Of a stretch of DNA of 49,445 nt, positions 1 through 41,313 are shown one piece after another. Position numbers and translations under genes: made by a program. Source of the stretch: Gemmatimonadota bacterium (GTDB lineage Bacteria; Gemmatimonadota; Gemmatimonadetes; Longimicrobiales; Gaopeijiaceae); assembly GCA_028873845.1 (NCBI GenBank), contig JAPPNO010000072.1, positions 1-49,445 on the forward strand. The letters are read 5' to 3'. The notes beneath the pieces were generated by a model. That model made no database searches. It was not told the DNA's origin and was given only the letters and a program-made list of their open reading frames with translations. How positions within the stretch are numbered: position 1 is the first letter of the stretch; each line of letters starts with the position of its first letter.

Positions 1-681
1 CCGGCTGAAGCGCGCGGCCTCGCGTTCGCCCGCGTTCGCCGCGGCCACCAGGCGCACACCGCGCAGCGTCTCGATCAGGAAGGCGCCGATCCCCGCGCTC
101 CGCTCCCGCATGACGCGCACGCGCACCACCAGGCGGCGCCGGTACGCCACGATCGCCCAGATCGCGGGGGGCAGAAGGGCGGCGGCGGCCAGGAAGAGCC
201 TCCAGTCGAGCCAGAGCAGCATGCCCACCGCGCCCGCCAGGAAGGCCACGTTGCCGAGCCACGCCAGCGCCGCGTCGGCCAGAACGCGTTGAATTTCGCT
301 CACATCGTTGTTAATTCGTGAGATTATTTCACCAAGAGGCGTTTTTGCGAAAAACCGTGGCGAGAGACGGTGCAGGTGGCGGTAGACGGTCACGCGCATG
401 CGGAAGAGGATCTCGGCCGAGACCTTCGTGTAGCGCATCCCGCTGACGAAGTTCAGGACGAAGCTGGCCGCGGTGACGAGGACGAAGAGGACGACGACCC
501 GCTTGAGGGCGTCCATGTCCGCGCCGAGGAGGGCGTCGTCGACGAGGGTGCGGGTGAGGAAGGGGACGTAGAGGGCGAGCGCGGTGCCCGCGAGGTTCAG
601 GAGGATGATGACCGCGAGTCGGCCCTTGAAGGGGGCGATGTAGGCGAAGCCGCGGCGGATTTCGGGGTCGAGGATGGCCAT
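1..681 (-). CDS. ABC exporter, N-terminal transmembrane domain (partial, runs off left edge)
   Basis: Reading the minus strand from the ATG at 681 gives an open frame to the window edge, beginning MAILDPEIRRGFAYIAPFKG. It continues with hydrophobic helices and the typical ABC-exporter run FFAKTPLGEIISRINNDVSE, the coupling-helix region of fused TMD-NBD exporters. The nucleotide-binding domain lies beyond the window. An in-frame stop just upstream of 681 fixes the start. It lies 31 nt downstream of a propeller lipoprotein gene on the same strand. Because several qhp genes occur in this window and QHNDH systems include an ABC transporter (QhpF) that exports the gamma subunit, this is a candidate qhpF; without the rest of the gene it could be any ABC exporter. 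Confidence 0.85.
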   Translation of the reverse strand, partial: MAILDPEIRRGFAYIAPFKGRLAVIILLNLAGTALALYVPFLTRTLVDDALLGADMDALKRVVVLFVLVTAASFVLNFVSGMRYTKVSAEILFRMRVTVYRHLHRLSPRFFAKTPLGEIISRINNDVSEIQRVLADAALAWLGNVAFLAGAVGMLLWLDWRLFLAAAALLPPAIWAIVAYRRRLVVRVRVMRERSAGIGAFLIETLRGVRLVAAANAGEREAARFSR

Positions 682-2011: not shown

Positions 2012-2042
2012 AAGTCCCCCTTGCTGTGGACGAACGAATTCG

Positions 2043-3344: not shown

Positions 3345-3442
3345 GCTTCTACCTCCGTGGGTCTGACGCACCGCCCTTGGTCCCATTACTTGGAGAGGCG
3401 TGCTCCTCGCCCGGGTTGTCCGCCGGTGCGTCTCCACCCTCG

Positions 3443-4548: not shown

Positions 4549-4578
4549 CCGCAGCCCTCCCTGCCGCGAACCCGGAAT

Positions 4579-5085
4579 TCAGAAGCGAAGCGACACCCCC
4601 AACCCGAGCTGCCCGTTCGGCGTGACCGACAGGGCGAGGCCCGCGTCCTCGATGCCGAGACGCCTCCTGTAGAACGCGTTGGTTCTGTTCGCCAGCCTCC
4701 ACGCTGAAACAGATGCCCAAATGCGACTTCCGTAGAACACTGCGACGCCGGCAACACCTACGATGGTTTCCACAGTGCACGGATCGTGTCGGCAATCAGG
4801 GTGGTTCGCAACGAAGCCGGCCGCGAGCCATGTGATCGCTCCTCCCGCCGTCAGCCAGGCCGCCAGCTTGCCCGCATCCCGATCGCCTGCGTAGTCGTAG
4901 CCGGCAGTGGGAATGATCAATTCGAGCGTTGCAGCGAGGAACGGGCTCTTCTTCATGTCCTCATAGCGTTCCTCGGGACTCTTCTGGGGGGGACGCACGA
5001 TAGTCGGTCGCTGGGCATGGACCTGGCCGGCATGGCCGAGGAGAGCGCCGAGAACGAGCAGGGAGGTGACGTAACGGTGCTTCAT
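4579..5085 (-). CDS. small exported or membrane protein, paralogue of 7969-8475
   Basis: A 168-aa protein with a signal peptide (MKHRYVTSLLVLGALLG, ending HAQ), a conserved stretch IVRPPQKSPEERYEDMKKSP, two or three hydrophobic segments and the C-terminus LALSVTPNGQLGLGVSLRF, which looks like a final outer-membrane beta strand. The start ATG has AGGAG upstream. The layout loosely recalls DUF5683-type proteins, but I do not recognise the family firmly. It lies 30 nt upstream of the broken propeller gene and is co-oriented with it; the same pairing recurs at 6515-8475, so the two genes were duplicated together. Confidence 0.75.
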   Translation of the reverse strand: MKHRYVTSLLVLGALLGHAGQVHAQRPTIVRPPQKSPEERYEDMKKSPFLAATLELIIPTAGYDYAGDRDAGKLAAWLTAGGAITWLAAGFVANHPDCRHDPCTVETIVGVAGVAVFYGSRIWASVSAWRLANRTNAFYRRRLGIEDAGLALSVTPNGQLGLGVSLRF

Positions 5086-5263
5086 CTGCGAATCTCCTGC
5101 CGTTCAAGCTCCCATCCCGGTGCGCTTCTTTTGCACCCCCTCCGCGAGCAAACGTGCACCTCCCGGGTTCCAACGGCAATGGTCCGCCTCGCCTGTGTGG
5201 CCTGTCTTCGCGTGCTACCCTGAGCGTTTGCTTCGGACGAATTGTGCTGCGAGCCTTGTAGCC

Positions 5264-6505
5264 ATGAGGTACGTCAACCGGAAGTGCCACGTCGCCATCG
5301 TCCTGTGCTGCACAGCGTGCGGCCCTTCCGACCGGACCGAGGAAGGCCTTCCCGGCCGCGTGGACAGCGCGGGCGTGGCGATTGTCCGGAACACGGATCA
5401 GCCGTGGCCTCGCGGGGAACTGGTCCAGCCCGCCAGGCGCGTCTTCGGTTCCGAGACCGAAGGCCCGGAGCTGTTTGGTGGACTCGGCAACGTTCGCTTG
5501 CACCCGAATGGATCGCTGTGGATCAAGGAGTGGCAAACCCGGGAGATTCGGGTATTCGACTCCGGCTCCGGGGCGCATCTGTTCACGGTCGGTGGGCGGG
5601 GTGACGGCCCTGGTGACTTCCGGCAGAGCAAGTTTCTGGGGTTCGACGGCGAAGGAAGCGCCTACGTGTATGACTTTGAACACCGGCGACTGTCCGTGTT
5701 TTCCGAGAGCGGTGAGTTGCTGCGCACCGACCCGATGCCGTCGTCCCTCGGCTTCCGGCCGGATCCACACCACGTGACCCGGTCGGGAACCCTTCTTGGC
5801 CAGATCGCGAGAGAAATGGGGCGCATACCGGCAGACGGCTGGACGTTAAGGGATACGGTCCGCATGTGGACCATGCCGCTGGACGGGACGGTCCCCGCTC
5901 TCGTGTCGAAGACACCCGGCGCACTGTGGTACTTCCGGGATCGAACGCAGGTCGTCGTACCGTACACCGGGATCCTGCCGTCCCCGTACGCCGGCGGCCC
6001 CCTTCACGGATTCCGGGACGACCGCGTCTACGTGGTCGACGACACCGGGGAGGCGTCGTATTCCGTGTACGGCCCGGCGGGTCTCGAACGCAGGGTCGAG
6101 ATGGCCCGGGCACCCCGAACGATCGATGGCCGCTCCACGGCGATGTTCGTTGAGCATTTGCGGGGCATCCGCTTTCCCGAATACCAGGTGCGGATCTACG
6201 AGGAACACCTGTCCGACATGCCGATGCCGGAGACGCGACGTCATTGGGATGCGCTGGTGGTCACGGATCAAGGTGGAGCGTGGCTCCGCCAAGTCGGCGG
6301 CACCGAAGCGGCGATGGCGGACCTCCCACCGGAGAATCGAATCTGGGACGTATTCGACGCCGAGGGCTTCCTTGTCGGCAATGTTCAACTGCCCGGCAAC
6401 GTCTCGCCGGTGCAGGTGAGCGGACAGTCCGTGGTCGTCATCGTCCGTGACGAGATGGACCGTACCAAGGTCGCGATCCACGAGGTTCGCTGGATGGGGG
6501 CGTAG
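5264..6505 (+). CDS. six-bladed beta-propeller lipoprotein on the opposite strand
   Basis: A 413-aa lipoprotein. Although the frame is open from 5120, the ATG at 5264 gives a proper signal peptide, MRYVNRKCHVAIVLCCTACG, with the lipid-modified Cys at residue 19. The motif VDSAGVAIVRNTDQPWPRGE follows, then blades with GRGDGPGDFRQSKFLGF, and it ends VIVRDEMDRTKVAIHEVRW. It is a distant relative of the minus-strand propellers. It lies between the two duplicated blocks, divergent from 4579-5085 and convergent with 6515-7795, with only nine bases between the stop codons. Ligand and function are unknown. Confidence 0.82.
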   Translation: MRYVNRKCHVAIVLCCTACGPSDRTEEGLPGRVDSAGVAIVRNTDQPWPRGELVQPARRVFGSETEGPELFGGLGNVRLHPNGSLWIKEWQTREIRVFDSGSGAHLFTVGGRGDGPGDFRQSKFLGFDGEGSAYVYDFEHRRLSVFSESGELLRTDPMPSSLGFRPDPHHVTRSGTLLGQIAREMGRIPADGWTLRDTVRMWTMPLDGTVPALVSKTPGALWYFRDRTQVVVPYTGILPSPYAGGPLHGFRDDRVYVVDDTGEASYSVYGPAGLERRVEMARAPRTIDGRSTAMFVEHLRGIRFPEYQVRIYEEHLSDMPMPETRRHWDALVVTDQGGAWLRQVGGTEAAMADLPPENRIWDVFDAEGFLVGNVQLPGNVSPVQVSGQSVVVIVRDEMDRTKVAIHEVRWMGA

Positions 6506-6514
6506 GAGGCTCCC

Positions 6515-7795
6515 CTACGTCCGCCGCCGAATCCGGTACCCCTCCACCCTCTCCACTCCCAGCTCGTCGCGCCTGACGACCAGGAAGTAGTCCCTTCCCA
6601 CCCAGCAGGGGGTGGCGTACCGGCCACACATTTGCATGTCCGGTGCCCCGGGATCCGGCGGGAAGGGCAGCACGCCCATCCATCGCCCATCCGGGCTGAA
6701 GACGCTCCACTGGTCCGGAATCCCGGACTCCGACGCCGACCACTCCCTGACCCACAGGAATCCCTCCGGACTCACAAGGATGGACTCGACCTCGCTGTAC
6801 TTCTCCCTCCTGGGAACCGGCCCTTCCTCTTCCGGTCGCGGCGGCCAGCCCATCATTTTCCGATACGCTTCCAGATGCGCCAGTTCGGCCTGCCACGCCT
6901 TGTCGGTGACGGGCGGCGGTTCGGTGGTGCGGCGAATGATCCGCACAAGCGTACCGTCCATCGATCGCTGATGCACCTCGTTGCCGGAGTTGCGGATGTA
7001 GAACGAGGGGGGATCGCCTCCCGCGGCCAACAGGCTGAAGAAACTGCTGGAGCATCCGAACGAGCGCGCGGCGTAGCTGTCGTCGATCTTCAGGAGTTCT
7101 TCGGCGTGCAGGACCATCTCCCCGAAGCGGGCGGACTGGCTCGTGACCGTCAGGTGCGTGCAATCGTCCGGGGCCTCGTCGGCGATCGTGTCCATGACCC
7201 CGACCAGGAAGGACCCGTCCGGAAGCGGGATCCTGCGCGACTCGCCCCAGGCGCCGAGCTCCCTCAGCCTGGCGTAGTCGACCGTGCGTTCCCTGAGCAG
7301 CTCGCCGCTGGAATCGAAGTAGTCGATCGCCCTCAGAAAGTAGTCCCATACGACCAGCGTGTCGGGGGGCAGGTACTGCAGCCGTTCCGGCCGGGTGAAC
7401 TCGCCGGGACCCTCGCCCGGCCCGCCTACGATCCTGGCCAGCTCTCCCGAAGGTTCAAAGAGCATGAGCTGCTTGTTCTCGGAGGACAGAACGGCCACTG
7501 TGCCATCCGGCAGCCGCGCCAGTCCGACCACGCTCCAGATCAGTTGGGCCGAGTCGTTGGCGAGTTCGCCCGGGTTCTCGGACCCTCCCAGCACGAATTC
7601 GGGTTCCGGGTCGATCGTCCAGAACTCCCCGTCCGCGTACTCGGGCGCGTGGTTCTCGACGATTTCGATGTCGGCGGAATCCCGGACGGTGAAGCCCGGA
7701 TCCGCTTCGGTCGCGCCGTCTTCTGCGGGCTGTTCACAGCCGGAAGCCGGCAGGGAGAGCGATAGAGCGGCAACGATGGTGACCCACCTGAACAT
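6515..7795 (-). CDS. six-bladed beta-propeller lipoprotein (intact paralogue of 3443-4548)
   Basis: A 426-aa lipoprotein. The ATG at 7795 was chosen because AGGAG lies seven bases upstream and it gives the signal peptide MFRWVTIVAALSLSLPASGC. It shows the family sequence DSADIEIVENHAPEYADGE, EPEFVLGGSENPGELANDSAQ, GGPGEGPGEFTRPERLQYLP and the C-terminus DELGVERVEGYRIRR. It serves as the template showing what is missing from the broken copy at 3443-4548. Upstream is a short relic of another propeller and then the small membrane protein at 7969-8475. It is probably anchored to a membrane and faces the periplasm or the exterior. Confidence 0.85.
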   Translation of the reverse strand: MFRWVTIVAALSLSLPASGCEQPAEDGATEADPGFTVRDSADIEIVENHAPEYADGEFWTIDPEPEFVLGGSENPGELANDSAQLIWSVVGLARLPDGTVAVLSSENKQLMLFEPSGELARIVGGPGEGPGEFTRPERLQYLPPDTLVVWDYFLRAIDYFDSSGELLRERTVDYARLRELGAWGESRRIPLPDGSFLVGVMDTIADEAPDDCTHLTVTSQSARFGEMVLHAEELLKIDDSYAARSFGCSSSFFSLLAAGGDPPSFYIRNSGNEVHQRSMDGTLVRIIRRTTEPPPVTDKAWQAELAHLEAYRKMMGWPPRPEEEGPVPRREKYSEVESILVSPEGFLWVREWSASESGIPDQWSVFSPDGRWMGVLPFPPDPGAPDMQMCGRYATPCWVGRDYFLVVRRDELGVERVEGYRIRRRT

Positions 7796-7873
7796 TCGCG
7801 GTCTCCTGTCCAAAACATGACTAGATATTCTGACCAACTTCGGCAGTCCGGCCTCCTGTAACGCGTCGCGCGG

Positions 7874-7952
7874 TCACGAACCCGATTCCGCGCCCGCAAA
7901 TCCGGCTTGTCCGCGCCGAATCCGATACCCCTCCACTCTCTAATCTCCACGA
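7874..7952 (-). pseudogene. relic of the 3' end of a beta-propeller gene
   Basis: Between the small membrane protein gene and the intact propeller gene, the minus strand at 7939-7874 reads RVEGYRIRRGQAGFAGAES and ends in a stop. This is the C-terminal signature of the propeller family (for comparison, RVEGYRIRR in 6515-7795). The similarity continues upstream to about 7952 with a small indel. Nothing of the rest of the gene remains. It is most simply explained as the scar of a deletion or unequal exchange within the propeller array. Confidence 0.6.
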
Positions 7953-7968
7953 AGGGCAAGCCGTTCAT

Positions 7969-8475
7969 TCAGAAGCGCAGCCTGACCCCCAGCCCGAGCT
8001 GCCCGTTCGGCGTGACCGACAGGGCAAGCCCCGCGTCGTTCAGGCCGAGGCTCCTCCGGTAGTACGCGTTGGTCCGTCTTGCGAGCCTCAAGGCGGAATC
8101 GAACGCCCAAACGCGACTGCCAATGATAGCCATCGCGCAAGTCTTGACTATGATCTCGCGCCCCCAACAGCGCGGTTTGTCCCTCGTACAGTGGTGTCCG
8201 GTCATCGCGGTTGCCCAGAACATGACCGCCGCCGCACCCATCAGCGCGGCCATCGGCCTACCCCCATCCTCGTCGCCGGCGTAGGCGTGGCCCACGGTGG
8301 GGAGGATCAGCTCGAGTGTTGCGGCGAACCACGGACTCTTCTTCATGTCCTCGTAGCGTTCCTCCGGACTCTTCTGCGGGGGCCGCACGATCCTGGGACG
8401 CTGCCCGTGGACCGGGGCGGCAAGGTTGAGGAGGGCGCCGAGAACGAGGAGGGTGGTGACATGGCGGTGCTTCAA
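7969..8475 (-). CDS. small exported or membrane protein, TTG start, paralogue of 4579-5085
   Basis: I place the start at a TTG (8475) rather than the ATG at 8643. From the TTG the protein is 168 aa, exactly the length of its paralogue, and AAGGAG lies nine bases upstream, at the place matching the paralogue's AGGAG-ATG. Sequence upstream of the TTG in this frame is only a shadow of the previous propeller's 3' end. The protein has a signal peptide (KHRHVTTLLVLGALLNLAAP), IVRPPQKSPEERYEDMKKSP, hydrophobic segments and the C-terminus LALSVTPNGQLGLGVRLRF. Pairs of Cys occur in the central loop. Function unknown. Confidence 0.75.
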   Translation of the reverse strand: MKHRHVTTLLVLGALLNLAAPVHGQRPRIVRPPQKSPEERYEDMKKSPWFAATLELILPTVGHAYAGDEDGGRPMAALMGAAAVMFWATAMTGHHCTRDKPRCWGREIIVKTCAMAIIGSRVWAFDSALRLARRTNAYYRRSLGLNDAGLALSVTPNGQLGLGVRLRF

Positions 8476-8587
8476 TTTGCGAAACTCCTTCCGTTCCGAC
8501 TCCGTGCAGGGTACAAACGTGCGCCTACCGGCTTCGGGCGGCAACCACCCCTGGAGTCGCCCGGCAGCGGCCTGACGGCGTCCGTCC

Positions 8588-9907
8588 CTAATCCGCCCGC
8601 CGCACGCGATACCCCTCCACCCTCTCCACCCCGAGCTCGTCACGCCTGACCGTCAGGAACATGTCCCGGTCCACCCAGCAGGGCACGAAGAACTTGTAAC
8701 ACATGAAGAGATCGAGCGGCCGGTGATCCGGCAGGACGGTCAGAACGCCCAGCCATCGCCCCCACGGACTGAAGACGCTCCACTGGTCGGGCATTCCCTT
8801 CCCGGACGCCGACCATTCCCTCACCCACAGATAACCCTCCGAGTCGACAACGAGGCCGGCCACCGGCGGATGCGACTCCTTGCGCGGCATTCCGTCGAAG
8901 ATGCCCGGAGGCAGCGGCTCACCAAAGGACTCGCCCATCGCATACATGGCATCCATCCACGCGCGGTGCGACCCGTCGGTGACGCTCACCGGATCGGTCG
9001 TCCGCCGGATGATCCGCACCAGTTCGCCGTCGAGCGAGAACTGCAGGATCTCGTTGCGGCCGCCATCGCTGATGTAGACCGAGAGCGGGTCGCCGCCGAC
9101 CGCGATGTGGGAGTCGACGGCGAAGGTAGGTACGAAGGGGTCCGCGATGCCGGCCGCGGCGTCGTTGTCCGCCACCCACATTTCCATGCCCCCCCACTTG
9201 CCGAACGAGTGCGCGTCGTAATCGTGGTCCACCCTTACGTATTCTTCGGGCCACCAGCGGTACGTGCTGCCCGGGCCGGGTTCGTTGTCCACCCCGGCCG
9301 CCTTCCGATCGATCACGCCCACGATGAACGACCCGTCCGGAAGGGTCATGAGCACGGACTCGCTCGCGTTGGGCACTCGCTCCCTGAGGGCGGCGCGGTC
9401 GATGGTCCGTTCCCGCAGGAGCGATCCGTCGGTGGCGAAGTAGATGACCGAGGTCATGTGGTAGTCCCACACGGCCAGCGTGTCCGGCGGCAAGTACTGC
9501 AGCCGCTCCGGCCGAATGAACTCGCCGGGCCCCTCTCCCACGCGCCCGATGGTGCCCGACAGCTTGCCGGAAGCTTCGAAGAGCAGCAGTCGTTGGCCCT
9601 CCGTGGACAGGATCGCCACCCTGCCGTCCGTCAGGCGGGCGATCCCGACCACATCCCAGATGAGCTGGGCCGAGTCGTTCGCCGCGCCGCCCGGGTACTC
9701 GTCTCCGCCGAGAACGATCTCGGGTTCGGGATCGATGGTCCAGAACTGGCCGGCGGGGTGCTCCGGCGTGTGGTTCACGACGATCTCGATGCCCGCGGAG
9801 TCGTGGACGGTGTAGCCGGTGCCGTTGGCGCCGGGGACCGAGGGGCGGTCGCAGGCCGCGGCGAGGATGATCGTGAAGATGGTGGCGAGGATGGTCGGCT
9901 TGCTCAT
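8588..9907 (-). CDS. six-bladed beta-propeller lipoprotein
   Basis: A 439-aa lipoprotein. The ATG at 9907 gives a signal peptide (MSKPTILATIFTIILAAAC) with lipobox AAAC and is preceded by GGGAG; the longer open frame to 10093 has no such features. Family landmarks are DSAGIEIVVNHTPEHPAGQ, EPEIVLGGDEYPGGAANDSAQ, GRVGEGPGEFIRPERLQYLP and RRDELGVERVEGYRVRRAD. Compared with 6515-7795 it has an additional insertion in the middle of the propeller (around FGKWGGMEMWVADNDAAAG). It is the furthest upstream minus-strand propeller of the array and probably has its own promoter in the AT-rich stretch beyond 10140. Confidence 0.85.
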   Translation of the reverse strand: MSKPTILATIFTIILAAACDRPSVPGANGTGYTVHDSAGIEIVVNHTPEHPAGQFWTIDPEPEIVLGGDEYPGGAANDSAQLIWDVVGIARLTDGRVAILSTEGQRLLLFEASGKLSGTIGRVGEGPGEFIRPERLQYLPPDTLAVWDYHMTSVIYFATDGSLLRERTIDRAALRERVPNASESVLMTLPDGSFIVGVIDRKAAGVDNEPGPGSTYRWWPEEYVRVDHDYDAHSFGKWGGMEMWVADNDAAAGIADPFVPTFAVDSHIAVGGDPLSVYISDGGRNEILQFSLDGELVRIIRRTTDPVSVTDGSHRAWMDAMYAMGESFGEPLPPGIFDGMPRKESHPPVAGLVVDSEGYLWVREWSASGKGMPDQWSVFSPWGRWLGVLTVLPDHRPLDLFMCYKFFVPCWVDRDMFLTVRRDELGVERVEGYRVRRAD

Positions 9908-10256
9908 CGGGGGGACTCCCTGCGCTTGGGTGGGGGACGCGCGCTCAGCGTTGGCGCGGCGGCAGATCATGACCCACAAGCAGGCAAGAACGGGGCCGCT
10001 CTCCCGAGCTCTCTTCGGGGTATCCGATTCAGCGCCGCAAGATGCTGTCGGGGCAATCCGACGCACACCCTCGTGTCCATCGTTCCACACCACGTGTCCG
10101 CCCGGCCACGATGGCCAGCGGTCAATAGTCGTTCTCAGCCACCCACAAAATGTCTACTGAACATTACATTTTGGAAACTTGGCATTACATCATAAACAAC
10201 CAGGGTCAACCGTTCCGCCCGGGATGCGCCGCCGCGCGAATGCCCGGAACGCCCCT
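9908..10256. other. intergenic region between the propeller array and qhpB
   Basis: About 350 bases with no convincing gene on either strand; the frames that cross it are antisense shadows of neighbours. The half next to qhpB (10140-10200) is strikingly AT-rich for this genome and contains an inverted repeat (listed separately). It lies downstream of qhpB and upstream of the 8588-9907 gene, so it probably holds that gene's promoter. Confidence 0.6.
10146..10173. promoter_or_regulatory. 8-bp inverted repeat, candidate operator
   Basis: CAAAATGT at 10146-10153 is the exact reverse complement of ACATTTTG at 10166-10173, with a 12-base spacer. It sits in an AT-rich island upstream of the propeller lipoprotein gene 8588-9907. 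An operator or a transcript hairpin is possible. Confidence 0.35.
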
Positions 10257-11363
10257 TCAGGAACCCCCCGGCCCCGTCCCCTCCGGAATCATGATGAACG
10301 AAGTCATGTCCGCGTCGTAGGCCACCGTGCGCCGGAATTCGTACGTGTCCGCGTCGTACACGTCGACTGTGCCGCCCGCGTTGTAGATGTACAGCAGCTC
10401 GCCGTTCGAGCTGACCTCCAGGCTCATCCGTGGCCGTCCCGCGAACCGCTGCCGGCTCTCCACCCGGCGGCCCTCCAGGTCGAAGGTCCAGAACTCGTAG
10501 TTCCCGATCTGCTGCACCAGCCCGTAGCCCTTCCTGCCCCCCGGCGCCAGCCGGAAGCTGACCCCCCGGCTCGGTCCCAGGGTGAAGAAGTCGAACTCCC
10601 GCTCGGCCAGGTTGACCCGCGCGATCCCCATGATGCGGCGGTTCTGGACGGGGTCGGTGAAGTTGAAAAGACCGGTGTGAATGCCGGTCTCGTCGTGCGA
10701 GCTGCGGGGGAAGCCGAAGCTGAAGCGTCCCAGTCCCTCCTCCAGCGGCCGCGACAGCTCCCAGCGATCCGCCTCCGTGTAGTTCTCCGTCTCCAGCACG
10801 AGAATGTCGCGGCCGAAGAAGTACAGATATTCGCCGTCGGGCGAGAACATGAGGCGCACCCGCTGCCGCTCCTCGCCGTCCGGCCACGGGATCGTGTCGG
10901 TGACCTCCTTCTCCTTCAGGTCGTACTTGAGCAGGACCGGGTCGTCGATCTCCCAGCGGTCGATCCGCTTCGTGTAGCGCATCGTGTTGAGGATGACGAA
11001 CTCCTCCTGCGGGTCGACCGTCATCCCCCAGATCCGCACCTTCGAGTTTCCCCGGCTCAGCGTGAAGCTGTCGATCGACTTGCGCGCGGCCACGTCGATG
11101 ATCTCGATCTCCTCGAACTCGGCGTTGCGCAGGTAGATGCGCTCGTGGTTCTGCGACAGCGTGAGGCTGATGGGGATTCCGGTCGTCGTCTCGATCCGGT
11201 CCACCACCTCGAGGGTGCTCTCGTCGATGACCAGGATGGACCGGTCGTAGGCGCCCATGTAGATGATGCCGTTGCCGCCGGTTTGGGCGTAGGCGGCGGA
11301 CGCGGTGACGGCGATGGCGACGAGGGCCGCGGCAGTGAGCGCGGCGGTGGACCCCCTGATCAC
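10257..11363 (-). CDS. qhpB: quinohemoprotein amine dehydrogenase beta subunit
   Basis: A 368-aa periplasmic subunit of QHNDH, the enzyme that oxidatively deaminates primary amines and passes electrons through its heme subunit. The beta subunit is a seven-bladed YVTN-like propeller that helps form the active-site cavity. The start is a GTG at 11363 whose GTGA overlaps the stop of qhpC, so the two are translationally coupled; the ATG at 11411 would extend into qhpC without reason. From the GTG there is a clean Sec signal peptide ending ASAAYA at residue 26. Repeats such as GAYDRSILVIDESTLEVVDR and LMFSPDGEYLYFFGRDILVL fit the family. The length is close to the known subunit plus its signal peptide. 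The identification rests mainly on its coupling to qhpC. Confidence 0.88.
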   Translation of the reverse strand: MIRGSTAALTAAALVAIAVTASAAYAQTGGNGIIYMGAYDRSILVIDESTLEVVDRIETTTGIPISLTLSQNHERIYLRNAEFEEIEIIDVAARKSIDSFTLSRGNSKVRIWGMTVDPQEEFVILNTMRYTKRIDRWEIDDPVLLKYDLKEKEVTDTIPWPDGEERQRVRLMFSPDGEYLYFFGRDILVLETENYTEADRWELSRPLEEGLGRFSFGFPRSSHDETGIHTGLFNFTDPVQNRRIMGIARVNLAEREFDFFTLGPSRGVSFRLAPGGRKGYGLVQQIGNYEFWTFDLEGRRVESRQRFAGRPRMSLEVSSNGELLYIYNAGGTVDVYDADTYEFRRTVAYDADMTSFIMIPEGTGPGGS

Positions 11364-11758
11364 GGGAAGATCAGGTCGATCTTGCGCCAGTCCTTCTGGG
11401 CGGACGCGCACTTGCCGGTCCAGTCGGGCGCGTGGTTCAGCTGGTCGGGGACGTGGGCGGGCCAGAAGCAGGCCAGGTGACAGTCGAAGAGGTCGCGCTC
11501 GACGGGCTGGCAGAGGCCGGCGGTGCCGCCGGTGGAGTCGACCTCCCAGCCGGGGGCGAAGACGAGAGAGCAGCCGAGGGGGATGTGGGGGCCGGAGCGG
11601 CTTTCGAGGCCCACGACGTCGAGGTCGGCGGGGGTGGCAGCGGCTGAGGCGTCCCCGTTTTCGGCGGGCTCGGGTGCCGGGGGCGCGGCCGAACCCTGGG
11701 CGCCCACATGTTCCTCAATCCGCCGGGCCTTCTGGTTGATGGCTTTCAGGTGGTCCAC
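11360..11758 (-). CDS. qhpC: quinohemoprotein amine dehydrogenase gamma subunit precursor (CTQ-bearing)
   Basis: A 132-aa precursor of the catalytic subunit. The start is a GTG at 11758 with AAGGAGG seven bases upstream. The N-terminus DHLKAINQKARRIEEH resembles the QhpC leader and has no Sec signal, as expected for export by an ABC transporter. The core contains GWEVDSTGGTAGLCQPVERD, then FDCHLACFWPAHVPD, and ends DWRKIDLIFP. Adding 56 to the mature numbering of the characterised enzymes puts every key residue in place. The CTQ pair is Cys93 and Trp99. The thioether pairs are Cys63-Glu72, Cys83-Asp89 and Cys97-Asp105. The leader, about 56 residues, is roughly twice the 28 I recall because of an Ala/Pro/Glu-rich insert. 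Cys117 is an extra cysteine. It overlaps qhpB by GTGA. Confidence 0.95.
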   Translation of the reverse strand: MDHLKAINQKARRIEEHVGAQGSAAPPAPEPAENGDASAAATPADLDVVGLESRSGPHIPLGCSLVFAPGWEVDSTGGTAGLCQPVERDLFDCHLACFWPAHVPDQLNHAPDWTGKCASAQKDWRKIDLIFP

Positions 11759-12267
11759 TCCTCGCCCTCCTTGGGGTGTACGGTGATGGCCGGTTTCAAC
11801 ATAGGGGGCCGGGGGGTAGCTGGCGAGTCCGGTCCAGTTACTGTCGGTCCGTTGCCGAAGGTCACCCGGAAACTGCCGGAGCCCCCGCCCCCGCCCCCCA
11901 GCCGCCTCTCCAACGGCGCCCCCCGCTTCGTCGACTCCGCGGTCCCGTTGCCGCTGGAGCTCGAGGCGGTGGCGTGATCGGGCGCCCATCCGTCGCCGCG
12001 GCAAGACCCGGGACAAGAGCATGTCGGAATGGGACAGGCCACCGGCGGGATTCGTGCCGCCCCCCCAAGTCAGGTGCGGCGCCTCGCACGAGACGGTGCG
12101 GCGGGTGCCGTCAAAACAGTGGCGGCGCGTCGTTCACCGCGGACGATGCACGCGTCAAGCGCCTCTATCCGACGTGTGAGGTGTGACATGACACGAGCAT
12201 CCCCCACTTTTCCCTCCACCCCAATCTCACTATACTTCGTACCATATCATATATTGGACCGTTCGAT
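11759..12267. other. 509-base region upstream of qhpC and of the divergent ATPase gene
   Basis: It holds the ribosome site of qhpC (AAGGAGG at 11766-11772, minus strand) and, at the other end, an inverted repeat at the ATPase start. A minus-strand frame from a GTG at 12042 to 11746 could encode 98 residues ending KPAITVHPKEGEEWTT, overlapping the qhpC start by a few codons. It is Gly/Ser/Pro-rich and matches nothing I know, so I do not call it a gene, though a short coupled leader peptide starting at its internal Met is possible. Confidence 0.4.
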
Positions 12268-12274
12268 ATGGTAC
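12239..12274. promoter_or_regulatory. 10-bp inverted repeat spanning the start codon of the DUF4143 ATPase gene
   Basis: GTACCATATC at 12239-12248 is the exact reverse complement of GATATGGTAC at 12265-12274, with 16 bases between; with one mismatch the arms extend to 13. The right arm contains the ATG at 12268. The stretch is AT-rich against a GC-rich background. It could be an autoregulatory operator, or a transcript hairpin that hides the start codon. Confidence 0.5.
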
Positions 12275-14505
12275 AAACTATCCCACGTCCGCATCTCCTG
12301 GCCGCTCTGCGGGACCGCTTGCTGGCTTCGCCCGCAGTCACCATTCTCGGCGCACGCCAGGTCGGCAAGACCACCATCGCGCGCGAGCTCATGGACGCAT
12401 GGCCCCGCCCGTCCGAGCACTTCGACCTGGAGAAGCCTCGCGACCGGCAGGCGCTCAGCCTCGCGCCGGAACGGGTTCTGAGCGGCTGCCGGGGGCTCGT
12501 CGTGCTGGACGAGGTGCAGCGATTGCCTCAAGTCTTCGAGATCCTGCGGCCACTGTGCGACGATCCGAATCGGAAGGCCGTCTTCGTACTTCTCGGCAGC
12601 GCCTCGCCCGGCCTTGTGAAGGGGGTCTCCGAAACCCTGGCGGGCAGGGTCCGATTCGTCGGAATGGGCGGGTTCTCCCTGCTCGAAGTGGGATCTCACC
12701 GTGCCGACCGGCTCTGGCTCCAGGGCGGGTTCCCCCGCGCGTTCCTTGCGGACTCGCCCGCCGACTGGGTGGACTGGATGGACTCGTTCACGCAGACCTT
12801 CGTGGAACGCGACATCCCGGGGATAACGCCGGGCGTATCGACCGAAGCCATCGGCCGCTGCTGGAGGATGATGGCCCATCTGCACGGGCAGCGCTGGAAC
12901 GCGGCGGAGGTCGCACGCTCGCTCGATGTCCGATCGCCCACAGCGAACCGCTACCGGGACCTTCTGGTCGGCACGTACATGGTTCGGCTGCTCCCCGCCT
13001 GGTCCGAGAACATCGCGAAGCGCGTGATGAAATCGCCGAAGGTCTACCTGCGGGACAGCGGGATGCTGCACTACCTGCTCGGCTTGGAGAGCATGCGCGA
13101 TCTCGCCGGCCATCCCCGGTACGGCGCGAGCTGGGAGGGATTCGCGCTCGAACAGGTGCTCCTGGCTCACGGCGACCGCGAATCCTACTACTATGCCACC
13201 AAGAGGGGCGCGGAGCTGGACCTGCTTCTGCGGCGGCATGGACGACACTGGGGCTTCGAGTTCAAGGCGAGCGAGGCGCCCCGCGTTACCAAGTCCATGC
13301 ACACCGTGCTTCGGGATCTCGCGCTGCAGCACCTCTGGGTCGTGTACCCGGGTTCCAGCGAGTTTCCGATGCACGACCGCATCACGGCCCTACCGCTGGC
13401 GAGAGTGCATGAACTCGATCTCAATCCGCACCCCGCACGGCGCCTCACCTCCCACCGGGCCAGGCATTCGAAGAGCGCCGGCGTCCTCAAGTACGTGCTC
13501 TATGTGGACGGGCCGTCCGACCTGGCTCTGCTGCGCGCCCTCGCCGAGCGGCTGGGGCATCCCGCGGCCGACGTGTGGGACGACCAGGCCAACGCCTTCT
13601 ACCTTCGCGACCTGCGACCGGTCGCGGGTGCCACTCAAGCCGACCCCGGTGCGCGATCAGGCCGCGATCGGCGGTCCGGCAGGAATAGGTTCGCGCTGAC
13701 GCCCGCGCAGCACTTCCGCGCTCTTCGCCGCGACGATCCCGACCTGAGAGGCCTCGCGATCCTCGACATGGGGTCAGAGCCTCGCCAGGAGGTCGAGCAG
13801 GATGGCCTGCTGACCGTCTGGTGGTGCCGGGGGGAGGTCGAACGGCACCTCCTCCGGTCCGAGGTACTCGGCATCTACGCGGCCACCCGGTACTTCAACC
13901 GGCCGGTGATCGACCGGATCGAGGACGAGTTGGTGGATGTCACCTACAGCGTTCATCCGGAGGGCGGTCGCTTCCTGGACGATCCCGAGCGGGTCGAGCG
14001 CAGTCCCAGCGAATTCGTCAGGGAATTCTTCCGGCGCCTGGCGGACCGGATCGGCGACGAGAGCCTGCTTCCTCAAGGCGGTCTGCACCGCCTGGTCCGG
14101 TCGATGGACAAGCGGGACATCCCCTCGGGAATCTCCCGGGTCCTGGATCTGCTGGACACCCTGTTCCGGCGCGCCCGGCGCGATCAGAAGTGCCCCGTCA
14201 CGGGTGGACCGGCGGCGATCAGCCGCGAGAGCGACGGTGATGTCTTCGTCGTGAGGGCGGAATGGGCGGAAGGTCCCTACCGGATCACAGGGCAGGCCCT
14301 TGCGCTCATCACGGAGGGAAATCCCGACGCGCGGACGAGGGACTGCATCGTCGAGGCTCTCCGGCGGCGGTGGGACGCCGGGGAGGATCGGCCGGTGGTG
14401 GAAAGCGAGCTGGTGGAGTCGTGCTCGCGGGCGCTGGCCTCGCCGGTTTGGGCGAGAGCGCGAGGAGCGCCTCCATCACGGCGCGGGCGCGAGGACGGTT
14501 GCTGA
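12268..14505 (+). CDS. AAA_14/DUF4143 ATPase fused to an OLD/TOPRIM-like C-terminal domain
   Basis: A 745-aa protein in two parts. Residues 1 to about 395 are a standard DUF4143-type ATPase: Walker A GARQVGKTT near residue 28, Walker B LVVLDEVQR, then a C-terminal nuclease-like fold with ELDLLLRRHGRHWGFEFKAS (a D...ExK pattern). Proteins of this family normally end there. Here the frame continues for about 350 residues with KYVLYVDGPSDLALLRALAE, LKG-like DLRGLAILDMGSEPRQ and WWCRGEVERHLL, which resemble the TOPRIM-containing tail of OLD-family nucleases. The TOPRIM acidic residues are altered (VDGPSD for EG.xD, LDMG for LDRD), so nuclease activity is doubtful. It is co-oriented with 14566-16182. 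Role unknown; defence or mobile-element association is plausible. Confidence 0.8.
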   Translation: MVQTIPRPHLLAALRDRLLASPAVTILGARQVGKTTIARELMDAWPRPSEHFDLEKPRDRQALSLAPERVLSGCRGLVVLDEVQRLPQVFEILRPLCDDPNRKAVFVLLGSASPGLVKGVSETLAGRVRFVGMGGFSLLEVGSHRADRLWLQGGFPRAFLADSPADWVDWMDSFTQTFVERDIPGITPGVSTEAIGRCWRMMAHLHGQRWNAAEVARSLDVRSPTANRYRDLLVGTYMVRLLPAWSENIAKRVMKSPKVYLRDSGMLHYLLGLESMRDLAGHPRYGASWEGFALEQVLLAHGDRESYYYATKRGAELDLLLRRHGRHWGFEFKASEAPRVTKSMHTVLRDLALQHLWVVYPGSSEFPMHDRITALPLARVHELDLNPHPARRLTSHRARHSKSAGVLKYVLYVDGPSDLALLRALAERLGHPAADVWDDQANAFYLRDLRPVAGATQADPGARSGRDRRSGRNRFALTPAQHFRALRRDDPDLRGLAILDMGSEPRQEVEQDGLLTVWWCRGEVERHLLRSEVLGIYAATRYFNRPVIDRIEDELVDVTYSVHPEGGRFLDDPERVERSPSEFVREFFRRLADRIGDESLLPQGGLHRLVRSMDKRDIPSGISRVLDLLDTLFRRARRDQKCPVTGGPAAISRESDGDVFVVRAEWAEGPYRITGQALALITEGNPDARTRDCIVEALRRRWDAGEDRPVVESELVESCSRALASPVWARARGAPPSRRGREDGC

Positions 14506-14565
14506 CGGGCCGCCGCCGGAGGCGAGTTGCGGGCGTCACGCTGCCGCGGGTATCCTTGACCAACG

Positions 14566-16182
14566 ATGACCACGCCGCCCGCCCGAGAACGAGAGCCGGT
14601 GCGCCGCACGCTGCCGCTCGGCGTCCAGTCCTTCCGGCCCATGCGGCAGGACGGGCACTACTACGTCGACAAGACGCTCCTCATCGAGCGACTCGTCCGG
14701 CAGGGATCGCGCTACTTCCTGTCGCGGCCCCGGCGCTTCGGCAAGAGCCTGCTGATCGACACGCTGGCGGAGCTCTTCCGGGGCAGCGAGGAGCTCTTCC
14801 GCGGGCTCGCGATTCACGACAGCTGGGACTGGTCCGTTCGCCGGGCCGTCGTCAGGCTCGACTTCGCCAGCGGAGTCTTCTCCACCCCTGAGCGGCTGGA
14901 GCAGGAGGTGGTCGCGCAGCTCAACGATCAGGTGCGCCAGGCCGGGCTTGGCATGGCCGAGGGCTTCGGGCCAGACGCCGACGGCACCGCCCCGCCCCTG
15001 CTGCGCCGGCTGATCCGGTCCCTGCACGAGACCACCGGCCACCGCGTCGCCGTCCTGGTCGACGAGTACGACAAGCCCATCGTCGACAACCTGGAGTCCC
15101 CGGACGTGGCCCGCACCAACCGCGACTTCCTCTCCGGGCTCTACGGCACCTTCAAGTCATGCGACGCCCACATCCGCTTTCTGCTGCTGACCGGGGTGAC
15201 CAAGTTCTCCAAGGTCAACCTGTTCTCCGGGCTGAACAACCTGACGGACATCACCCTCGACCCCCGTTTCGCCACCATCTGCGGGTACACCCAGGACGAG
15301 CTGGACACCGTCTTCGAGCAGGAGTTGGAAGCGCCGGACCTCAAGCCGCTGGACCGCGGCAAGATCAAGGAGTGGTACGACGGCTACCGCTGGCTGGGCG
15401 AGCCCGTCTACAACCCCTACGACGTGCTGCTGCTGCTGCGCATTCGCAAGTTCCGCGCCCACTGGTTCAACACGGGAACGCCGCGGTTCCTGCTCGACTT
15501 CCTGGAGCGGCGCGGCGTCACCAGCTTCGCCCTGGAGGGCATCGAGACCGACGAGTCGCTGCTGTCGGCGTTCGACGTGGACCACATCTCGACCGAGGCG
15601 CTGCTCTGGCAGACCGGATACCTGACGATCGCGGGCGTGGAGGACGACGAGGAGGGCGAAGAGATCTTCCGGCTGGGGTACCCCAACCTGGAGGTGCGCC
15701 GGAGCCTGAACCGCCACCTGTTCGGCCGCATGACCGGCCGGCGCGACGACCCCGGCACCGCGTTCTGGCGGGGCATCTTGCGCGCGCTGCGCACCGGCGA
15801 TGCGGCAGGCGTCGAGTCCGAGCTGCGCGCGCTGTTCGCGGGCATCCCGCACGAGTGGCACACCCGCAGCGACATTGCCCGCTACGAGGGCTACTACGCG
15901 AGCGTGTTCTACGCCTTCCTGCAGGGCACGGGCCTGGACGTGCGGGCCGAGGAGAGCTCGGCTGCGGGCAGGGCGGACATCGCGGTGGTGCTGGACGGCG
16001 CCGCGTGGGTCTTCGAGCTGAAGATCGAGGAGCGGGCGTCGGAGGGGGCGGCGCTGGCGCAGTTGCGGGAGCGGGGCTACGCGGACAGGCACCGCCGCGG
16101 GGGGCGGAAGGTGCACCTGGTGGGCATCCACTTCAGCGAGGAATCCAGGACCGTCACCGCGTTCGAGGTGGCGGAGGGATAG
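14566..16182 (+). CDS. AAA-ATPase-like protein with PD-(D/E)XK nuclease domain (PDDEXK_9)
   Basis: A 538-aa protein typical of the AAA-ATPase_like/PDDEXK_9 family. It begins LPLGVQSFRPMRQDGHYYVD, has the family's unusual P-loop YFLSRPRRFGKSLLIDTL, Walker B VAVLVDEYDKPIVDN and LLTGVTKFSKVNLFSGLNNL. The C-terminus holds the nuclease motif GRADIAVVLDGAAWVFELKI with the Asp and Glu-x-Lys residues present. The length is normal for the family. These genes are widely spread and often multi-copy, and their biological role is not settled. It follows the fusion ATPase by 60 bases on the same strand and converges on qhpD with a 24-base gap. Confidence 0.88.
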   Translation: MTTPPAREREPVRRTLPLGVQSFRPMRQDGHYYVDKTLLIERLVRQGSRYFLSRPRRFGKSLLIDTLAELFRGSEELFRGLAIHDSWDWSVRRAVVRLDFASGVFSTPERLEQEVVAQLNDQVRQAGLGMAEGFGPDADGTAPPLLRRLIRSLHETTGHRVAVLVDEYDKPIVDNLESPDVARTNRDFLSGLYGTFKSCDAHIRFLLLTGVTKFSKVNLFSGLNNLTDITLDPRFATICGYTQDELDTVFEQELEAPDLKPLDRGKIKEWYDGYRWLGEPVYNPYDVLLLLRIRKFRAHWFNTGTPRFLLDFLERRGVTSFALEGIETDESLLSAFDVDHISTEALLWQTGYLTIAGVEDDEEGEEIFRLGYPNLEVRRSLNRHLFGRMTGRRDDPGTAFWRGILRALRTGDAAGVESELRALFAGIPHEWHTRSDIARYEGYYASVFYAFLQGTGLDVRAEESSAAGRADIAVVLDGAAWVFELKIEERASEGAALAQLRERGYADRHRRGGRKVHLVGIHFSEESRTVTAFEVAEG

Positions 16183-16206: not shown

Positions 16207-17742
16207 TCACCCCTCGAACTGCTCCAGATACCCCGGATTCTTCACCGCGATCTCTCCGTAGACCTCCAGGCAGGTGTTGGTCCAGCTCCGGATCCAGTCG
16301 CAGTAGTGCAGGTTCGCCTTCCCCGTGTCCCCATACCGCACATGCGCCTCGTGGTAGCATCCCCCCGCGCATAGCGGCCGCGCCCAGCAGGTACTGCAGT
16401 CCGTCTTGTTCGCCACGTGGTGGTGCCCCAGGAACTCGAACTGTCGCTGGCGGTCCAGCCCGCCATGCACCGACCCGATGCTGTGATCGTCCGACCCGGC
16501 GAACCGGTGGCAGAGCGCCACCTCCCCATCCGTCGCCACCCCCATCAGCCCCAGCCCCGCCCCGCACGGGAACGCCTTGCTCACCCCCTTGTGGATCTCC
16601 TCGATCGTGTCCTTCACGTTCGAGAACCCGTGGTGCCGGTCCTCGACCGCGAACTCGAGGAACTCCTGCGCCAGCTCCTCGAACTGGCCGAGCATGTGGT
16701 CGAAACCGGTGTCCTCGATGGCGTAGCCGCGCCCGTTGGCGGTCGTGACCGGCGCGAAGCCGACCTCCCAGAATCCTATTTCGTTGCGCAAATGGTGGAA
16801 AATCCGGGTGACGTTCAGCGTCTGGCGCGTGAGCGTCACGCGGGCCCCGATCGGTCTTGTGCGATGCCGCTCCAGCAGCCGCTTGATCTTCGGCATGGCG
16901 TAGTCGTAGCTGCCCATCCCGTTCTTGAAGACGCGGAACCGGTCCTGCATCTCCTTCGGCCCGTCGATGCTGACCGTCACCCCGATCCGGTTCTCGGCCA
17001 GCCAGTCGATCACCTCGTCGCGCAGCAGCGTCCCGTTGGTCGTGAGTGAGAAGTCGACATCCTTCCCGAGTTCCTTCGCCCGCTCGCGCGCGTACACCGC
17101 CGTCTTCTTCAGGACCTTGAAGTTGAGCAGGGTCTCGCCGCCGAAGAAGGTCAGGTGCGCCACGGGCAGGTCCCCCGACTGCTCGAACATGAAGTCGACG
17201 CTCGCACGCGCGGTCTCCTCGCTCATGTAGTTGGGCGCGGGATCGCACGTCGTGTCGACGATCTTGTCCTCGCCGTACTCGTAGCAGTAGGTGCACGCCA
17301 GGTTGCACTTGTTGGTCACGTTGAGGACCATCGTGGTGAGCGGGAAGTTCGACTGGGGGAGGACGCGGGGGAAGGTCTCTTTCGGGGCGCTGGTGAGGCC
17401 GATGGCGCGGACGCGCATGAGTTCGGCGAGGCTGCGGCGGACGGGGGATTCGCCGAAGCGGGGGGTGAGGGTAGTGATGATGGTGTCTTCGCTGGCGGGG
17501 CCGGCGTCGAGGGCCTGGAGGACGGCGAGGGAGGGGTCGTCGAGGTGGAAGACGGCGGCGGAGGGGACCAGGTAGAGGAAGGTCTCGCCCCCGGCTTCGA
17601 AGGGGTGGAACTCGCGCTGGGCGAGGAAGGTGGGGGCGGGCTCGACGACCGGGGGGGGCGCAGCCGCGTGGGCGGCGCCTGGAGCCGCGGTCGCGGACGA
17701 GCCCACGGCCTTGGGCGGCCCGGTGTGCGCGCGTGCGCTCAT
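16207..17742 (-). CDS. qhpD: radical SAM/SPASM maturase of the QHNDH gamma subunit
   Basis: A 511-aa enzyme that, in the characterised systems, uses S-adenosylmethionine radical chemistry to form the three Cys-to-Asp/Glu thioether bonds in QhpC. The cluster motif CNLACTYC has cysteines 146, 150 and 153, preceded by TTMVLNVTNK. Other radical SAM landmarks are LTFFGGETLLNFKVLKK and FSLTTNGTLL. The SPASM region has FPCGAGLG, DGEVALCHRF and DCSTCWARPLCAGGCYHEAH, enough cysteines for two further clusters. The first 35 residues are an Ala/Pro-rich extension. It lies 4.4 kb from its presumed substrate gene qhpC, on the same strand, separated by the two ATPase genes. It is divergent from the first ankyrin gene (83 bases apart), so they may share a regulatory region. 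Confidence 0.92.
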   Translation of the reverse strand: MSARAHTGPPKAVGSSATAAPGAAHAAAPPPVVEPAPTFLAQREFHPFEAGGETFLYLVPSAAVFHLDDPSLAVLQALDAGPASEDTIITTLTPRFGESPVRRSLAELMRVRAIGLTSAPKETFPRVLPQSNFPLTTMVLNVTNKCNLACTYCYEYGEDKIVDTTCDPAPNYMSEETARASVDFMFEQSGDLPVAHLTFFGGETLLNFKVLKKTAVYARERAKELGKDVDFSLTTNGTLLRDEVIDWLAENRIGVTVSIDGPKEMQDRFRVFKNGMGSYDYAMPKIKRLLERHRTRPIGARVTLTRQTLNVTRIFHHLRNEIGFWEVGFAPVTTANGRGYAIEDTGFDHMLGQFEELAQEFLEFAVEDRHHGFSNVKDTIEEIHKGVSKAFPCGAGLGLMGVATDGEVALCHRFAGSDDHSIGSVHGGLDRQRQFEFLGHHHVANKTDCSTCWARPLCAGGCYHEAHVRYGDTGKANLHYCDWIRSWTNTCLEVYGEIAVKNPGYLEQFEG

Positions 17743-21371: not shown

Positions 21372-21416
21372 TGGATCCATGTACGAGCGAGAACTCCCCG
21401 AGTTGGAAAGACAAAA

Positions 21417-21457: not shown

Positions 21458-21467
21458 GGATAAGGTG

Positions 21468-29876: not shown

Positions 29877-29900
29877 ACTGTCAATGACATGAGGGGGAGA

Positions 29901-39738: not shown

Positions 39739-41313
39739 TCAAGGACTCCGGGAACCGAAACCCCGGCCCTGTCCGCCTCCCGGCACCAACACCCCGTCCG
39801 CCACCAGCAGCGCCACCACGCCGATGAAGTTTGCCAGGTCGACAGGAGGCAGGCCCTCCCGCGCGGCCCACTCGGAATACGATTCGTAGAGCGCGCCCGG
39901 GTTCCTGCTCGCGGCTGCGAGGTGGACGATCCGCAGCAGGTCGATGTCGCGAAAGTAGCGCACCCCTTCCGGGAAGCGCGGGGTGACCAGAGCGGGTGCC
40001 ATGCGCAACCGGTTGCCGAAGACGAGGGGGCGTTCGACGGTGTCACGGCGTCCCGCGCGCAGGCGTCCCGAGCCCAGGCGCAGCGCGTGAAACGCTGCAC
40101 GCACTTCGGGATCGTCGCGCAGCGCCACCGCGTCGGGACCATCCGGGGAATTGGGGTCGACTGCGGTCCCGGCGTGGTCGGCGAGCCATTCGGCCCGGCG
40201 TTCCCAGAAAACGTCGTTGCGCTCCCCGCCCCCCGTCTCCGCCACATGCTCCGCAAGGCCGCCTCGTAGCGCCCGGTACATCGCCTGTTCCCTCCGGCCG
40301 AAGAACTCGACGGCCGTCTCGGCCATCTCCGCATCGCGTATCGCCGTGTTGACCGCCACCGCGGCCAGCCACCCCGACGCCAGCGCCTTCTTCACCCCGT
40401 ACGAGGACATCGGATCGACGAACGAGGCCGCGTCGCCGACCAGGAGCGCACGGCCATCGGCGAAGGTCGACGAGGTGTACATGGACGCGGTCACCGCCCA
40501 CGCGCGGCCGACCGGCCGGGCCGGAGTGGTGATCGAGCGCATGAGCGAAGTGCGGGCGACTTCGGCCTCGAAGGCGGCCGCAAGATCTTCCGCGTCCTCC
40601 ATGACCGCGTGCAGTTCCGGGTCGAGCATGACCGCGACGTGGCGTTCCCGCTCCGAGGTGGGGACCGACCAGGCCCAGCCGCGCTCGAAGCTCTCGACGA
40701 GCGCGTGGGTCGGGTCGACGTTCGGCCACCCGGCCGCGTTCTCGTGGCGGCGGATCACCGCGAGGGTCGGTGCGGCCGTCTCCGGAACCCGGTGCCGACG
40801 CGCCAGCACGCCCGCGCGCCCGGTGCAGTCGAGCAGCCAGCCCGGCCGGAACCCCACGCGATCCCCGCCATCCAGCACAACCTCCACCCCCCACCCCTCC
40901 CCGTCGCCAACCCGTTCCGGCAACCTGGCCACACCCCCCACGACCTCGGCCCCAGCGCCCACCGCCACCTCCCGCAGCAGCCCGTCGAAGCGGCCACGCA
41001 GCACGTGAAACCCCGTCGCACCCCCAGCAAAGTCGTCACGGCGCCCTTCACCACCCCAAAGCGCCGTATTCCCCCCGTTCGGCTGGAATCCCCCCGCCTC
41101 GACCACCCCCAGCAACCCCGTTGCCGCCAACACCTTGCGGGTGCTCGGCGGCAGCGACTCGGCCAGCGACTGCTCGTCCGCCCCGGCAACACCTCCACCG
41201 CCCAGCGCCCGCTCCACCACCACCACTCCCAGCCCCCACCGCGCCAACAGCCCGGCCGCCGCCGACCCGGCGGGGCCACCACCCAGAATGAGAACTTCCG
41301 GTTCGTTGGTCAT
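39739..41313 (-). CDS. qhpG: FAD-dependent monooxygenase for CTQ formation (QhpG-like)
   Basis: A 524-aa flavoprotein of the tryptophan-halogenase/geranylgeranyl-reductase-like group. The N-terminus has the dinucleotide-binding motif LILGGGPAGSAAAGLLAR, and the second FAD motif is ALLVGDAASFVDPMSSYGVK. In QHNDH systems QhpG hydroxylates the tryptophan of QhpC that becomes CTQ. The conserved DPMSSYGVKKALASGW segment, the length and the presence of qhpA-D in the window support this assignment. On sequence alone other halogenase-like oxidases remain possible. No clear ribosome site precedes the ATG. It lies upstream of the LRR metalloprotease and divergent from the tRNA-like sequence. Confidence 0.8.
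   Translation of the reverse strand: MTNEPEVLILGGGPAGSAAAGLLARWGLGVVVVERALGGGGVAGADEQSLAESLPPSTRKVLAATGLLGVVEAGGFQPNGGNTALWGGEGRRDDFAGGATGFHVLRGRFDGLLREVAVGAGAEVVGGVARLPERVGDGEGWGVEVVLDGGDRVGFRPGWLLDCTGRAGVLARRHRVPETAAPTLAVIRRHENAAGWPNVDPTHALVESFERGWAWSVPTSERERHVAVMLDPELHAVMEDAEDLAAAFEAEVARTSLMRSITTPARPVGRAWAVTASMYTSSTFADGRALLVGDAASFVDPMSSYGVKKALASGWLAAVAVNTAIRDAEMAETAVEFFGRREQAMYRALRGGLAEHVAETGGGERNDVFWERRAEWLADHAGTAVDPNSPDGPDAVALRDDPEVRAAFHALRLGSGRLRAGRRDTVERPLVFGNRLRMAPALVTPRFPEGVRYFRDIDLLRIVHLAAASRNPGALYESYSEWAAREGLPPVDLANFIGVVALLVADGVLVPGGGQGRGFGSRSP

What the first reader, a model, noticed from the sequence alone, without database searches (positions are those of the whole stretch)
11360..11758. 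QhpC keeps every CTQ and cross-link residue but has a leader twice the usual length
With an offset of 56, Cys93/Trp99 (CTQ) and the pairs Cys63-Glu72, Cys83-Asp89 and Cys97-Asp105 all match the known mature numbering exactly. The precursor has about 56 residues before the mature start instead of the roughly 28 I recall, owing to an Ala/Pro/Glu-rich insert (residues about 21-47). The leader recruits QhpD and the exporter, so the insert may change recognition or processing. Cys117 is an additional unpaired cysteine.
Basis: partly seen in the sequence, partly recalled or inferred. Interest (0 to 1): 0.7.

Follow-up and report, generated by a model that had tools for sequence, protein, structure and literature searches.

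The report
QhpC with an elastic leader linker
The small subunit of a bacterial amine-oxidising enzyme really does start with an unusually long leader, but the extra stretch is a freely varying Ala/Pro spacer between two conserved signals that relatives share and one close relative has lost, so it most likely changes little.

Summary
Confirmed: window 11758-11360, minus strand (the finding gives no strand), encodes the gamma subunit (QhpC) of quinohemoprotein amine dehydrogenase. All CTQ and cross-link residues are in register at offset 56, and the GTG start is well supported. The long leader is also real, but it is not rare and probably does not alter recognition. Across 127 distinct QhpC precursors the leader has two conserved parts: an N-terminal motif (M-x-H-L-K-x-I-N-x-K-A-x-R-I-E) and D-V-V-[AG]-L before the core. 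A spacer of 5-49 residues joins them. Within the window's genus the spacer evolves almost neutrally (pN/pS 0.92, about 10 indel columns per pair), against 0.18 and 0.16 for the motifs and 0.017 for the mature part. A sister species (L053) has no spacer although its mature DNA is 205/210 identical to that of a spacer-bearing relative. By homology to the Paracoccus cut (EVVA|M), processing should fall at DVVG50|L51, giving a 50-residue leader. Cys117 (mature 61) is no oddity: it is invariant in the Gemmatimonadota/Acidobacteriota sequences, always with Asp/Glu at 72 (85/85 distinct cores). Proteobacterial forms have Ala61 with Gln or Gly at 72. A fourth thioether there is the most novel reading not excluded.

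The parts
11360..11758 (-). qhpC, gamma-subunit precursor of quinohemoprotein amine dehydrogenase, 132 aa, GTG start
11766..11772 (-). ribosome-binding site AAGGAGG, 7 nt before GTG
   Evidence: read
11705..11758 (-). leader part 1, residues 1-18: recognition motif VDHLKAINQKARRIEEHV; AF2 helix 9-21
   Evidence: pN/pS 0.18 in the genus; Asn8, Lys10, Ala11 invariant in 54 sequences; helix in model
11624..11704 (-). leader part 2, residues 19-45: variable Ala/Pro/Gly/acidic spacer (the 'insert')
   Evidence: pN/pS 0.92, 9.9 indel columns per pair; no hydrophobic, aromatic, basic or Cys residue in 27
11573..11623 (-). leader part 3 and N-terminal stem, residues 46-62: LDVVG|LESRSGPHIPLG with the predicted QhpE cut after Gly50 (at about 11608/11609)
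   Evidence: pN/pS 0.16; homologous to EEVVA|M of Paracoccus (28-residue leader in PMC7876137); cut site inferred
11363..11572 (-). mature core, residues 63-132, with Cys63-Glu72, Cys83-Asp89, Cys97-Asp105, CTQ Cys93/Trp99, extra Cys117 and co-occurring Asp128
10257..11411 (-). qhpB, beta subunit (divergent; TIGR03907 44.5 bits, below its cut-off of 223)
   Evidence: next to qhpC in relatives
16207..17742 (-). qhpD, radical SAM/SPASM maturase; CteB (5WGG) is the nearest solved structure and the alignment includes the N-terminal region
   Evidence: TIGR03906 555 bits
33430..35163 (-). qhpA, di-heme alpha subunit
   Evidence: TIGR03908 471 bits, four Pfam domains
39739..41313 (-). qhpG-like flavin monooxygenase
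   Evidence: NF049967 210 bits, just under its cut-off of 240; conserved neighbourhood
1..681 (-). qhpF exporter, N-terminal part, cut by the contig start; a qhpF C-terminal part and qhpE lie on contig C24

Best explanation
This is an ordinary QhpC precursor with a bipartite, spacer-containing leader. The conserved N-terminal helix (about residues 1-18) is what QhpD grips, presumably by its N-terminal RiPP-recognition-element-like region. The conserved DVVG|L marks the place where QhpE removes the leader before QhpF exports the modified subunit. The Ala/Pro/Gly/acidic stretch between them is an intrinsically disordered spacer whose length and sequence drift with little constraint beyond staying hydrophilic and non-basic. 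Shown here by sequence: the two-part leader, the near-neutral spacer, its repeated change in length and its recent loss in a sister species, and the presence of QhpD, QhpG, QhpF and QhpE genes in the genome. Inferred: which part binds QhpD, where QhpE cuts, and that the spacer has no effect on processing.
For: Spacer length is 5-49 across distinct homologues with both flanking motifs retained. pN/pS is 0.18 / 0.92 / 0.16 / 0.017 for motif / spacer / cut region / mature, with indels almost only in the spacer; the window against its three closest relatives has 14-14.5 non-synonymous changes in about 57 spacer sites and none in about 162 mature sites. L053 has a clean in-frame loss of the spacer, 205/210 mature DNA identity to L060, and sits among spacer-bearing tips in a QhpD tree with six long/short changes. 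Spacer Arg+Lys is 0.9% against about 11% in neighbouring proteins, and the 27-residue spacer here has no hydrophobic/aromatic/basic residue (chance about 1e-7 from those proteins' composition). AF2 gives a helix at 9-21 and no structure at 22-42 (low confidence). In the homologous maturase PapB, a poly-Ala spacer between leader and cross-link motif is tolerated experimentally (PMC9413430). The leader is needed for QhpD binding and is removed by QhpE (PMC7876137).
Against: No experiment has been done on this clade. Composition of the spacer is constrained although its sequence is not, so it may have some role (solubility, protease resistance, reach). In the window's genus 16 of 17 sequences keep 22 or more residues between the motifs, so some length may be favoured. 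pN/pS pooled over divergent pairs depends on the spacer alignment.
Confidence: 0.8

Rival explanations
1. The insert is a functional addition that changes QhpD/exporter recognition or adds a second processing step.
For: Spacer composition is strongly biased and basic residues are avoided; most genus members keep a long spacer.
Against: Near-neutral sequence with frequent indels; loss in L053 with the neighbouring qhp genes in place; flanking motifs unchanged; PapB tolerates leader extensions.
Confidence: 0.1
2. The true start is internal, and the long leader is a mis-annotation.
For: GTG codons occur within the frame (residues 18 and 49).
Against: Strong Shine-Dalgarno before GTG1; an ATG/GTG/TTG start at or near the same place in all 127 distinct homologues; purifying selection on residues 1-18.
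Confidence: 0.02
3. The mature N-terminus lies at residue 57, as the Paracoccus numbering implies, so the leader is 56 residues, cut in the ...SG|PHIPLG stem.
For: Numbering offset of 56.
Against: The residues aligned with the Paracoccus cut EVVA|M are DVVG|L, 6 residues earlier, and they are the conserved element; the stem between L51 and Cys63 varies in length from 10 to 20.
Confidence: 0.2

Closest known systems
QhpC of Paracoccus denitrificans / Pseudomonas putida QHNDH (PDB 1JJU, 1JMX; PF08992; NF037958)
   Same: All four Cys-containing cross-link sites, Trp43, and Asn-x-Lys-Ala and [DE]VV-type leader motifs; QhpA, B, D, E, F, G partners.
   Different: About 22 extra leader residues, a longer N-terminal stem (PHIPLG), an extra invariant Cys61 with Asp/Glu72; 44-47% identity in the core.
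Novosphingobium sp. RL4 plasmid QhpC (L161)
   Same: Leader type, PHVPMG stem, Cys61 and Asp72.
   Different: Short spacer (about 15 residues).
Ranthipeptide precursors PapA / CteA with PapB / CteB
   Same: Leader plus a core cross-linked by a SPASM radical SAM enzyme (PapB: Cys to Asp/Glu); PapB accepts a spacer after the leader (PMC9413430).
   Different: Short peptides, not enzyme subunits; no CTQ.

Membership tests
QHNDH gamma subunit (QhpC) | PF08992 / NF037958 core above cut-off | tested here: met
   112.9 bits (cut-off 25) and 117.4 bits (cut-off 50)
QHNDH gamma subunit (QhpC) | CTQ Cys37/Trp43 and Cys7-Glu16, Cys27-Asp33, Cys41-Asp49 residues | tested here: met
QHNDH gamma subunit (QhpC) | Leader with Asn-x-Lys-Ala motif, about 28 residues, cut by QhpE | tested here: inconclusive
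   Motif and a homologous cut motif are present; length is 50-56, not 28; cleavage itself not testable
QHNDH gamma subunit (QhpC) | qhpA, B, D, G, F, E in the genome | tested here: met
   A, D clear; B below its family cut-off but in place; G just under its cut-off; F in two pieces; E on contig C24
QHNDH gamma subunit (QhpC) | Cross-links and CTQ actually formed | not testable with these tools
   needs mass spectrometry or a structure
RiPP-type leader recognition by an RRE | N-terminal RRE-like region in QhpD | tested here: inconclusive
   QhpD residues 44-470 align with CteB 5WGG from its residue 6; no structure was predicted

The most novel reading that the evidence does not exclude
In the Gemmatimonadota/Acidobacteriota form of QHNDH the gamma subunit carries a fourth Cys-to-Asp thioether, made by QhpD between the invariant Cys61 (window Cys117) and Asp/Glu72 (window Asp128) or the universally conserved Asp67, in addition to the three known ones and CTQ.
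Probability: 0.12. Interest if true: 0.6.

Novelty: new variant of a known kind. Interest (0 to 1): 0.32.

Why it matters
It separates what in the QhpC leader is essential (two short motifs) from what is spacer, and gives natural constructs (L053 without spacer, L023 with 49 residues) to test how SPASM radical SAM maturases use leaders on whole proteins. The invariant Cys61 with Asp/Glu72 offers a clean mass-spectrometric test of whether a large clade of this enzyme carries an extra cross-link.

Tried and rejected
(1) Disulfide for Cys61: alpha has only the four heme CXXCH cysteines conserved and beta none, so no conserved partner was found there. (2) An extra QhpD cysteine (in WTNTCLEVYGE) tracking Cys61: it did across the first set, but genome G776 has Cys61 with Gly in QhpD in both copies, and the tree fits a separate change; rejected. 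(3) Asp36 and Asp56 as Cys61 partners: not tracking in G776. (4) Statistical support for Cys61-Asp72 coupling: G776 copy 1 (both present) is sister to the Proteobacterial type lacking both (100/100), so there is only one evolutionary event. In the low-confidence model Cys117 and Asp128 lie in two consecutive helices, which does not favour a link. (6) The whole genome was not available as a file. (7) The QhpD and QhpE primary papers are not held.

Full report
OBSERVATION. The frame is on the minus strand, 11758 to 11360. It encodes a 132-residue QhpC: PF08992 and NF037958 match residues 58-132, and phmmer to 1JJU/1JMX fixes the offset at 56. The GTG start has AAGGAGG seven bases upstream, and every one of 127 distinct precursors has ATG, GTG or TTG at or near the same place. 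Known leaders are 28 residues (PMC7876137); the Paracoccus, Pseudomonas, Cupriavidus and Leisingera genes on plasmids agree with that.

HOW COMMON. PF08992 is in 75 of 395 genomes sampled from the window's phylum and 29 of 396 of a second phylum, whose named records are mostly Acidobacteria MAGs. Named records place the window's closest kin among Gemmatimonadota MAGs. Nearly every leader has M-x-H-L-K-x-[IV]-N-x-K-A-x-R-[IV]-E or close to it, then a spacer, then D-V-V-[AG]-L, then a 10-20 residue stem to Cys7. The distance from N-x-K-A to D-V-V varies from 5 to 49; it is 35 here and 13 in Paracoccus. By Cys7 numbering the leader length has median 43 and range 26-68; 121 of 127 exceed 28 and 18 are 56 or more. 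The 127 are dominated by Gemmatimonadota and Acidobacteriota, so this describes those phyla, not all bacteria.

SELECTION. In 17 distinct genus members, pN/pS is 0.18 for residues 1-18, 0.92 for the spacer (33% identity, 9.9 indel columns per pair), 0.16 for residues 46-62 and 0.017 for the mature part. The mature protein of the window and of L039, L044 and L045 is identical, while the spacer of the window differs from theirs by about 14 non-synonymous changes. L053 lacks the spacer entirely; its mature DNA is 205/210 identical to L060, which has 34 residues there, and L053 sits with L050 and L060 in the QhpD tree (support 99 for the trio). Length class (28 or more against fewer) changes six times on that tree. 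The spacer is Ala 26%, Gly 18%, Pro 16%, with Arg+Lys 0.9%: free in sequence, limited in composition, as for flexible linkers. AF2 finds a helix at 9-21 and no structure from 22 to 42, but mean pLDDT is only 58.

MECHANISM. QhpD needs the leader to hold QhpC; QhpD makes three thioethers, QhpG hydroxylates Trp43, QhpE removes the leader, QhpF exports (PMC7876137). The window's QhpD aligns to CteB over residues 44-470, which includes the N-terminal region where related enzymes carry a leader-binding RRE (PMC8172795, PMC10352776). Hence the conserved helix is the likely handle and DVVG|L the likely cut, homologous to EVVA|M. That places the mature start at Leu51, giving an 82-residue subunit. In the related PapB system a poly-Ala spacer after the leader is tolerated (PMC9413430). 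The steps inferred rather than shown are the binding site, the cut site and the absence of effect.

MACHINERY. QhpA, D, B and G are in the window, QhpE is on contig C24, and qhpF is split between the window's start and C24.

CYS117. Mature Cys61 is invariant in 98 of 98 sequences of the first set and present in 85 distinct mature cores, all with Asp (84) or Glu (1) at 72. The 11 distinct Proteobacterial cores without it have Ala61 with Gln or Gly at 72. Of the near-invariant positions in the Cys61 group only 61, 72 and 32 are lost throughout the other group, and 32 is already changed in the intermediate G776 copy 1. No conserved partner cysteine exists in alpha or beta. G776 copy 1 branches with the Proteobacterial type yet keeps both residues, so the joint change is one event and cannot carry a statistical argument. 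A fourth thioether is therefore a testable idea, not a result.

VERDICT. A real but explained feature: a known protein with a clade-typical, length-variable leader spacer. The window's gene context and the extra Cys are the more interesting leads.

Noticed in passing
window 1-41313; G017:C1:1600878-1650577 (loci L210-L213): The qhp cluster is pulled apart: G-A-D-C-B-F-E spans about 9 kb in a sister species (L050) but about 49.7 kb in G017 and over 41 kb here, with ankyrin-repeat, LRR, AAA-ATPase and beta-propeller genes between the qhp genes. The qhp genes keep one strand; the ankyrin and ATPase genes face the other way.
   Followed up: partly
window 17826-33413, plus strand: Four large ankyrin-repeat-like genes (about 1150 aa each) lie between qhpA and qhpD; similar genes occupy the same gap in G017, G151, G064 and G192.
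   Followed up: partly
window 12268-16182, plus strand: Two ATPase genes (AAA_14/DUF4143 and AAA-ATPase_like/PDDEXK_9) separate qhpD from qhpC.
   Followed up: no
window 713-10093, minus strand: About five paralogous 6-bladed beta-propeller-like proteins lie between qhpB and qhpF; relatives also lie at this place in G017, G152, G064 and G309.
   Followed up: no
window 1-681 and L177 (G000:C24) about 8604-9701: Two incomplete qhpF pieces overlap in a short stretch of near-identical DNA but differ upstream; either an assembly break/strain mixture or a 5'-truncated second copy.
   Followed up: partly
QhpD C-terminus, window about 16270-16272 (minus): An extra cysteine (WTNTCLEVYGE) beyond the seven SPASM cysteines is invariant in the large clade and Gly in Proteobacterial QhpD and in both G776 copies.
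   Followed up: yes
L178/L230 and L207/L231 (genome G776): One genome of the second phylum has two qhp loci, one of Proteobacterial type and one deep-branching in the other group.
   Followed up: partly
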